A stretch of DNA of 64,000 nt from Candidatus Brevefilum sp. (GTDB lineage: Bacteria; Chloroflexota; Anaerolineae; Anaerolineales; Anaerolineaceae). The stretch is taken from positions 1 through 64,000 of the forward strand of contig JAHYJN010000005.1 of the NCBI GenBank assembly GCA_019428905.1, given 5' to 3'. A program made the position numbers and the translations under genes. The notes beneath the pieces were generated by a model. The model made no database searches, was not told where the DNA came from, and saw nothing but the letters and a program-made list of their open reading frames with translations. This document shows positions 1,096 to 53,486 of this stretch, piece by piece (positions within the stretch are counted from its first letter, which is position 1; each line of letters begins with the position of its first letter).

Positions 1096-1112
1096 GCTTA
1101 CACGAATAATTG

Positions 1113-1180
1113 TGATTGCTCAGGTAGTCCTGCTGATGAGGGGTGGGCTTCTATTTCTCAGCCCACCGAATAGTTACGAA
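1113..1180 (-). repeat. Palindromic dispersed element, degenerate copy upstream of the sufE-like gene
   Basis: TTGCTCAGGTAGTCCTGCTGATGAGGGGTGGG matches reverse complement of 53294 copy (TTCTCAGGTAAACCTGCTGCTGAAGGGTGGG); hairpin GTGGGCT/AGCCCAC. Confidence 0.65.
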
Positions 1181-8475: not shown

Positions 8476-8582
8476 TCAGTAACTGTTCAAGTAGGACTGC
8501 TGCTGAAGAGTGGGGTATGTGGTGAGGCGGCTTCGCTGCCTCACCACATACCCAATCACTTCGCAGGTTGAGTAGGTTCCCA
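8476..8582 (-). repeat. Palindromic dispersed element, full-length copy
   Basis: Central hairpin GGGTATGTGGTGAGGCGGC TTC GCTGCCTCACCACATACCC (8513-8553); flanks match copies at 10132 and 53294. Confidence 0.85.
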
Positions 8583-10131: not shown

Positions 10132-10227
10132 GGTAGCTACTTCCTGTGCGAGAGAATAGGGGGTGTCTGTGGCGCCGTAACCGCCATACCCTTCCCTCCA
10201 GCAGCAGGTCTACTTGAACAGCTACCA
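10132..10227 (+). repeat. Palindromic dispersed element, degenerate-hairpin copy
   Basis: GGTAGCTACTTCCTGTGCGAG...CCCTCCAGCAGCAGGTCTACTTGAACAGCTACC. Confidence 0.75.
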
Positions 10228-23560: not shown

Positions 23561-23612
23561 GGAACTACTCAGTGTGCGACACCTTCAGCAGCAGCCCAGA
23601 CTGATAAGTAAT
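23561..23612 (+). repeat. Palindromic dispersed element, short copy lacking the central hairpin
   Basis: GGAACTACTCAGTGTGCGACACCTTCAGCAGCAGCCCAGACTGATAAGTA. Confidence 0.7.
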
Positions 23613-34050: not shown

Positions 34051-34104
34051 ATTGCTACTCAGGGTGCGAGGGTGCCCTTCAGTAGCAAGGCTGCCTGAGT
34101 CAGT
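34051..34104 (+). repeat. Palindromic dispersed element, short copy
   Basis: ATTGCTACTCAGGGTGCGAGGGTGCCCTTCAGTAGCAAGGCTGCCTGAGTCAG. Confidence 0.65.
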
Positions 34105-34289
34105 GTTTGGCATCCAAAGGGTAGAGCTGTTATCCTTTTAGAAAGAATGACTCCCTGGTTTTTCAATCTTTGATCGATGTTTTTCCGAATATGGTGAATC
34201 AAGGGGAAAAATTATAACCAAAACATATTATAATCGTTGATTAATCAGGTTGTTTTGTATCCAAAAGTCAATATCTTCAGGAGGTTAAT

Positions 34290-39969: not shown

Positions 39970-39990
39970 CTTTACGATTGGTAATTGCCC

Positions 39991-40052
39991 AGGGGTAGGA
40001 GGTGTGGTGCGGCGGCGCAGCCGCCACACACCCCCTGATTCCCTCACACGCT
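39991..40052 (-). repeat. Palindromic dispersed element, partial copy
   Basis: GGTGTGGTGCGGCGGC GCA GCCGCCACACACCCCC; right flank (rc) CGTGTGAGGGAATCAGGGGG matches the 53294 copy. Confidence 0.65.
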
Positions 40053-40088
40053 GCGTCGTGACGACGAATGTAATTAGGGGTTCATTCT

Positions 40089-53114: not shown

Positions 53115-53293
53115 ATTGTGCTCCAGATAAATTCGCCCTGTTCGTCTGACAGACAGGGCGGTTGGTTTTGTTGTTATGATACCAAACCTTGTGGTTGAGA
53201 TCGCTTCGAGGTGATCAAATGATTAATCTCGCCAGTAGTTGTGGTACAAGGCTCTAATCATACTTCAACTCATTTCGATTACCAATGTTAAAT

Positions 53294-53397
53294 AGTAACT
53301 ACTCAGCATGTGAGTAAATTGGGGGGTGTGGTGTGGCGGCTTCGCCGCCACACCACACCCCCCACCCTTCAGCAGCAGGTTTACCTGAGAAGTTATG
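53294..53397 (+). repeat. Palindromic dispersed element, full-length reference copy
   Basis: Central perfect hairpin GGGGGGTGTGGTGTGGCGGC TTC GCCGCCACACCACACCCCCC (53321-53363); flanks AACTACTCAGCATGTGAG / CCCTTCAGCAGCAGGTTTACCTGAGAAGTT. Confidence 0.9.
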
Positions 53398-53486
53398 TTA
53401 TACATTGAATTCGATGTATGATTGAACAGCGGTTTTCATCTGCACCTTGACCTGTACAGCGTGATTGGATAAAATAAAGTCCTCCA

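What the first reader, a model, noticed from the sequence alone, without database searches (positions are those of the whole stretch)
53294..53397. Dispersed palindromic element family: reference copy with a perfect 20-bp-arm hairpin
Seen: AACTACTCAGCATGTGAG...[GGGGGGTGTGGTGTGGCGGC TTC GCCGCCACACCACACCCCCC]...CCCTTCAGCAGCAGGTTTACCTGAGAAGTT. Related sequences occur at 1113 (rev), 8476 (rev), 10132, 23561, 34051 and 39991 (rev), always between genes and in both orientations. The whole unit is itself an imperfect inverted repeat with a long GC-rich hairpin inside. Inference: a REP/BIME- or MITE-like family mobilised in trans, or a structured RNA/attenuator element. I know of no named family that matches.
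Basis: partly seen in the sequence, partly recalled or inferred. Interest (0 to 1): 0.72.

Follow-up and report, generated by a model that had tools for sequence, protein, structure and literature searches.

The report
Miniature transposon family with IS66-type ends
The repeated hairpin is one copy of a tiny gene-less jumping element, present in dozens to about a hundred copies in this bacterium and two relatives, whose ends match those of a known transposon group (IS66, ISBst12 type) that very probably moved it: a new member of a known kind.

Summary
The unit is window 53295-53396 (102 bp), ends GTAACTRCTCAG...CTGAGYAGTTAC, with a perfect 20-bp-arm hairpin inside. All seven window copies belong to one family with about 100 model matches in this genome and similar numbers in two of 15 congeners. 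It is a MITE, a non-autonomous DDE transposon. Of 90 copies, 31 are flanked by perfect direct repeats of exactly 8 bp (shuffled expectation 0.5); the terminal 12 bp are the best conserved part; the ychF-tRNA-Leu site is unoccupied in relatives. The only IS66 transposase found in the genus (genome G008) lies in a 1,564-bp single-ORF element with the same ends. IS66 elements across the class share them, two with perfect 8-bp repeats, and a published active ISBst12-group element, ISDge4, has TIRs GTGACTACTCAGCA/GTAACTGCTCAGCA and an 8-bp repeat. Units of 46-73 bp without the long hairpin also carry perfect 8-bp repeats, so that hairpin is not needed for mobility; its arms nevertheless change in compensating fashion. 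REP/RAYT is rejected; an RNA attenuator is unsupported as its primary nature. Remaining gap: no IS66 transposase is assembled in the three carrier genomes.

The parts
53295..53396 (+). Reference copy of the MITE, 102 bp, TIR to TIR
53295..53306 (+). Left terminal inverted repeat GTAACTACTCAG (identical to IS66/ISBst12-type ends)
53385..53396 (-). Right terminal inverted repeat, read on - strand ATAACTTCTCAG (2 mismatches to GTAACTRCTCAG)
53321..53363 (.). Central GC-rich hairpin, 20-nt arms, TTC loop; optional part of the family
53287..53294 (.). Left copy of the decayed 8-bp target duplication GTTAAATA
   Evidence: 6 of 8 match the right copy
53397..53404 (.). Right copy of the decayed 8-bp target duplication GTTATACA
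1112..1177 (-). 66-bp family member with perfect 8-bp target duplication (GAATAATT on + strand, 1104-1111 and 1178-1185)
8479..8579 (-). 101-bp copy with symmetric variant hairpin (GGGTATGTGGTGAGGC...)
10133..10225 (+). 93-bp copy with decayed hairpin
23561..23612 (+). 52-bp copy without hairpin, duplication GAATCTTG/GAATCTGG (7 of 8)
34051..34107 (+). Degenerate short copy without hairpin (3' border uncertain)
39981..40062 (-). 82-bp copy, right-hand part shortened, duplication decayed (6 of 8)

Best explanation
The unit is a type II miniature inverted-repeat transposable element (resemblance to the parent IS confined to the ends) with IS66-family, ISBst12-like ends. A transposase (TnpC) supplied in trans by an IS66 element recognised the ends GTAACTRCTCAG and inserted the unit, mostly into AT-rich intergenic DNA, where repair of staggered cuts left 8-bp direct repeats. 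Past movement as a DDE-type transposon is shown by the ends, the duplications and an unoccupied site. That the mobiliser was IS66 is inferred from identical ends and identical duplication size. The central hairpin is optional cargo; its two arms stay complementary most simply because template switching or hairpin repair copies one arm onto the other (inferred).
For: 31 of 90 copies have perfect direct repeats of 8 bp against 0.46 expected (max 3 in 200 shuffles), 0-1 at other lengths from 4 to 12. Terminal 12 bp least diverged (6%, against 15-23% inside). ychF-tRNA-Leu(CAA) order kept in 11 congeners; none has the element there and in 8 the gap is 167-262 bp against 372 bp here. IS66 element of G008 (L133:2-1565) bears exact GTAACTACTCAG and GTAACTGCTCAG ends around one 487-aa ORF above the NCBIfam IS66 cut-off. 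Class-wide IS66 relatives bear the same kind of ends, L148 and L153 with perfect 8-bp repeats. Published active ISBst12-group ISDge4 has TIRs GTGACTACTCAGCA/GTAACTGCTCAGCA and an 8-bp repeat (PMC12898284). The IS66 guess was written down before any partner was searched for.
Against: No IS66 transposase is found in the three carrier assemblies, which are 75-92% complete and fragmented, so absence is weak evidence; conversely G008, which has the IS66 element, has no MITE match. Only 12-16 bp are shared with the IS ends, so another transposase with similar ends is not excluded. Current activity is not shown.
Confidence: 0.9

Rival explanations
1. A MITE of the same anatomy, but mobilised by a transposase family other than IS66 that happens to use similar ends and 8-bp duplications.
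For: No IS66 transposase in carrier assemblies; shared stretch is short (12-16 bp).
Against: Exact match of the terminal 12 bp to the only IS66 element in the genus and to IS66 elements across the class; ISDge4 ends and 8-bp repeat; no other element with these ends seen among the listed places in G000, G002 and G003.
Confidence: 0.06
2. REP/BIME/REPIN family moved by a RAYT (Y1 transposase).
For: Dispersed intergenic palindromes in both orientations; three Y1 transposase genes in the genome.
Against: Precise 8-bp target duplications and long TIRs; no pair of these ends bounds the Y1 loci (one MITE copy end lies near the Y1 gene of L032).
Confidence: 0.01
3. A structured RNA or attenuator/terminator element kept for its effect on transcripts, with dispersal a by-product.
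For: Very stable hairpin; 35 compensatory double changes in the stem against 8.0 expected with arms shuffled, maximum 25 of 1000 shuffles.
Against: Many copies with intact ends and perfect 8-bp repeats lack the long hairpin; no T-run; gene contexts tandem 47, divergent 19, convergent 10 and no significant orientation bias; no Rfam match. Subfamily inheritance and arm-to-arm copying also give compensatory changes.
Confidence: 0.03

Closest known systems
IS66 family, ISBst12 group (ISDge4 of Deinococcus geothermalis, PMC12898284; element L133 of congener G008)
   Same: Terminal word GTAACTRCTCAG, 8-bp target duplication
   Different: The autonomous elements are about 1.5 kb with one transposase ORF; the MITE is 43-105 bp, has no gene and shares nothing beyond the ends
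Type II prokaryotic MITEs (review PMC10969869), e.g. QMITE1/QMITE2 of Coxiella, Chunjie of Geobacter
   Same: TIRs, direct repeats, tens of intergenic copies, size variants down to a few tens of bp
   Different: Different ends and interior; a central perfect GC-rich palindrome that varies symmetrically
REP/BIME/REPIN elements
   Same: Dispersed intergenic palindromes
   Different: No target duplication and a Y1 mobiliser there; precise 8-bp duplications and DDE-type ends here

Membership tests
MITE (prokaryotic) | Short, no coding capacity, multiple copies | tested here: met
   43-105 bp, 97-146 model matches in each of three genomes
MITE (prokaryotic) | Terminal inverted repeats | tested here: met
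   GTAACTRCTCAG at both ends
MITE (prokaryotic) | Target-site duplication of fixed length | tested here: met
   8 bp, 31 of 90 perfect, expectation 0.46
MITE (prokaryotic) | Insertion polymorphism / unoccupied site | tested here: met
   ychF-tRNA-Leu gap without the element in 11 congeners, gene-level comparison; intergenic DNA is too diverged for a base-exact empty site
IS66/ISBst12-derived MITE | Ends identical to those of an IS66 element | tested here: met
   L133 exact over 12 bp at both ends; class-wide IS66 loci 0-2 mismatches at most ends
IS66/ISBst12-derived MITE | 8-bp target duplication as in IS66 | tested here: met
   MITE; IS66 loci L148, L153; literature PMC12898284, PMC3281130
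IS66/ISBst12-derived MITE | IS66 transposase present in the same genome | tested here: not met
   None in G000, G002, G003 assemblies, which are incomplete; presence today is not required for past mobilisation
IS66/ISBst12-derived MITE | Mobilisation in trans by IS66 TnpC | not testable with these tools
   Needs an experiment
REP/REPIN-RAYT | Linked Y1 (RAYT) gene flanked by the same repeats | tested here: not met
   Three Y1 loci, none bounded by the ends
REP/REPIN-RAYT | No target duplication | tested here: not met
   8-bp duplications
Known structured RNA (Rfam 15) | Match above gathering score | tested here: not met
   Only two tRNAs in the window

The most novel reading that the evidence does not exclude
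The central hairpin is not passive: its symmetry is kept because it aids transposition (through single-strand or cruciform forms) or acts on host transcripts, so the family is a MITE that carries a self-correcting palindromic module.
Probability: 0.12. Interest if true: 0.5.

Novelty: new member of a known kind. Interest (0 to 1): 0.3.

Why it matters
It gives an identity to an unnamed repeat family that fills intergenic space in three genomes of one genus, and links MITEs to the little-studied single-ORF ISBst12 group of IS66. The set (same ends, cores from 43 to 105 bp, hairpin present or absent) is a clean starting point for asking what IS66 ends minimally need and how palindromes evolve inside transposons. 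It also shows how a very stable hairpin can look like an RNA regulator when it is transposon interior.

Tried and rejected
REP/RAYT: Y1 genes found, but not bounded by these ends. Rfam: nothing. Terminator/attenuator: no T-run, no significant bias of orientation. IS66 in the own genome: none. IS-sized inward-facing pairs of ends in the own genome: none seen among the listed places, which include all exact matches. Loci with widely spaced ends in G003 proved to be separate short copies. Plasmids and phages: no match. Integron attC sites were considered from the outline of the unit and dropped once TIRs and 8-bp duplications were clear (no attC search was run). A first pattern search was badly chosen and found only two places.

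Full report
OBSERVATION. The quoted sequence is present. The element is window 53295-53396, 102 bp. Its inner inverted repeat is perfect over 20 bp plus a T/A pair and is the only one of that size found in the window. The unit folds at -61 kcal/mol, z -8.2.

GENOME-WIDE FAMILY. The query gives 60 blast matches in the own 3.04-Mb assembly. A covariance model gives 108 matches at E<=0.01 there, 97 and 146 in two congeners (G002, G003), and none or one in the other 13 genomes of the genus. Some palindromic copies match on both strands, so copy numbers are lower than these counts. Family and order relatives gave no blast match. The terminal word GTAACTRCTCAG with up to one mismatch occurs 122, 126 and 202 times in the three carriers against 26, 8 and 18 for the reversed word.

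IT IS A TRANSPOSON. Across 90 copies with definable ends (a few spurious pairings included), flanking direct repeats are exactly 8 bp: 31 perfect against 0.46 expected, and 0 or 1 at other lengths. Targets are AT-rich, and 67 of 76 scored copies lie outside ORFs of 100 aa or more (crude ORF calling). The window copy at 1112-1177 has a perfect duplication; that of the reference copy has decayed to 6 of 8. At the reference locus the order ychF - tRNA-Leu(CAA) is kept in 11 congeners, including carrier G003; none has the element there, and in eight of them the gap is 167-262 bp against 372 bp here (intergenic DNA is too diverged for a base-exact empty site). The outer 12 bp are the least diverged part.

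WHICH TRANSPOSASE. GTAA ends with 8-bp repeats suggested IS66 before any partner was seen (note). A scan for DDE_Tnp_IS66 found none in the own genome and one in the genus, in G008. That element, L133:2-1565, has a single 487-aa ORF above the Pfam DDE_Tnp_IS66 and NCBIfam IS66 cut-offs; it begins GTAACTACTCAGGC and, read on the other strand, ends GTAACTGCTCAGCC. IS66 relatives elsewhere in the class carry the same kind of ends, in L148 and L153 with perfect 8-bp repeats. An active ISBst12-group IS66 element, ISDge4, is described with TIRs GTGACTACTCAGCA and GTAACTGCTCAGCA and an 8-bp repeat (PMC12898284). Two other genomes of the class carry units with unrelated interiors but the same ends and 8-bp repeats (L135 725-875, 151 bp; L136 1501-1632, 132 bp), so the ends, not the interior, define the group.

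ANATOMY AND THE HAIRPIN. Unit lengths cluster at about 43-57, 61-76 and 92-105 bp. Perfect 8-bp repeats also flank 46-, 48-, 55-, 66-, 68-, 69- and 73-bp forms without the long hairpin, so it is not needed for movement. Two related 46-bp units sit at different loci with different perfect repeats (L099, L104), which argues that the short form itself moved. In 23 copies of 102 bp the stem has 35 compensatory double changes against 8.0 (maximum 25) with arms shuffled; the loop occurs as both TTC and GAA within the same outer orientation. Inference: arm-to-arm copying by template switching or hairpin repair, and inversion of the hairpin tip. Inheritance within subfamilies accounts for part of the double changes, but about a dozen different symmetric arms can be read.

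SHOWN AND INFERRED. Shown: repeat family, TIRs, 8-bp duplications, unoccupied site, ends shared with IS66 elements. Inferred: that IS66 TnpC moved it, that the partner was lost from or not assembled in the carriers, and the origin of the stem symmetry. Not found: a mobiliser in a carrier genome.

NOVELTY. A new MITE family of a known kind (type II MITE with IS66/ISBst12-type ends). No description of a MITE of this group was found in the open-access library, which is not exhaustive. Very short MITE forms are known (QMITE1 from 39 bp, PMC10969869).

Noticed in passing
L031, L032, L033 (G000 C53, C89, C113): Three Y1 (IS200/RAYT-type) transposase genes in the own genome; a MITE copy end lies near the one in L032 (L032:1243, - strand), apparently by chance.
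   Followed up: partly
L012 (C117) and L022 (C48), contig ends: Two versions of the same MITE insertion with the same flanks but different hairpin details: strain variants in the assembly or a duplicated region.
   Followed up: no
L135:725-875 and L136:1501-1632: Unrelated-interior MITEs with the same IS66-type ends and 8-bp duplications in two other families of the class.
   Followed up: partly
L124:1390-1464: A 75-bp copy of G003 sits in the middle of a terminator-like hairpin (GCTGT...ACAGC then T-run), with no 8-bp duplication visible.
   Followed up: no
L070:3781-3874: A G002 copy whose core has been duplicated symmetrically (CCCATATGGGAGTCCCATATGGG), a possible snapshot of palindrome growth.
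   Followed up: no
genome G008: Carries the IS66 element with these ends but no MITE copy, whereas the three MITE carriers have no assembled IS66.
   Followed up: partly
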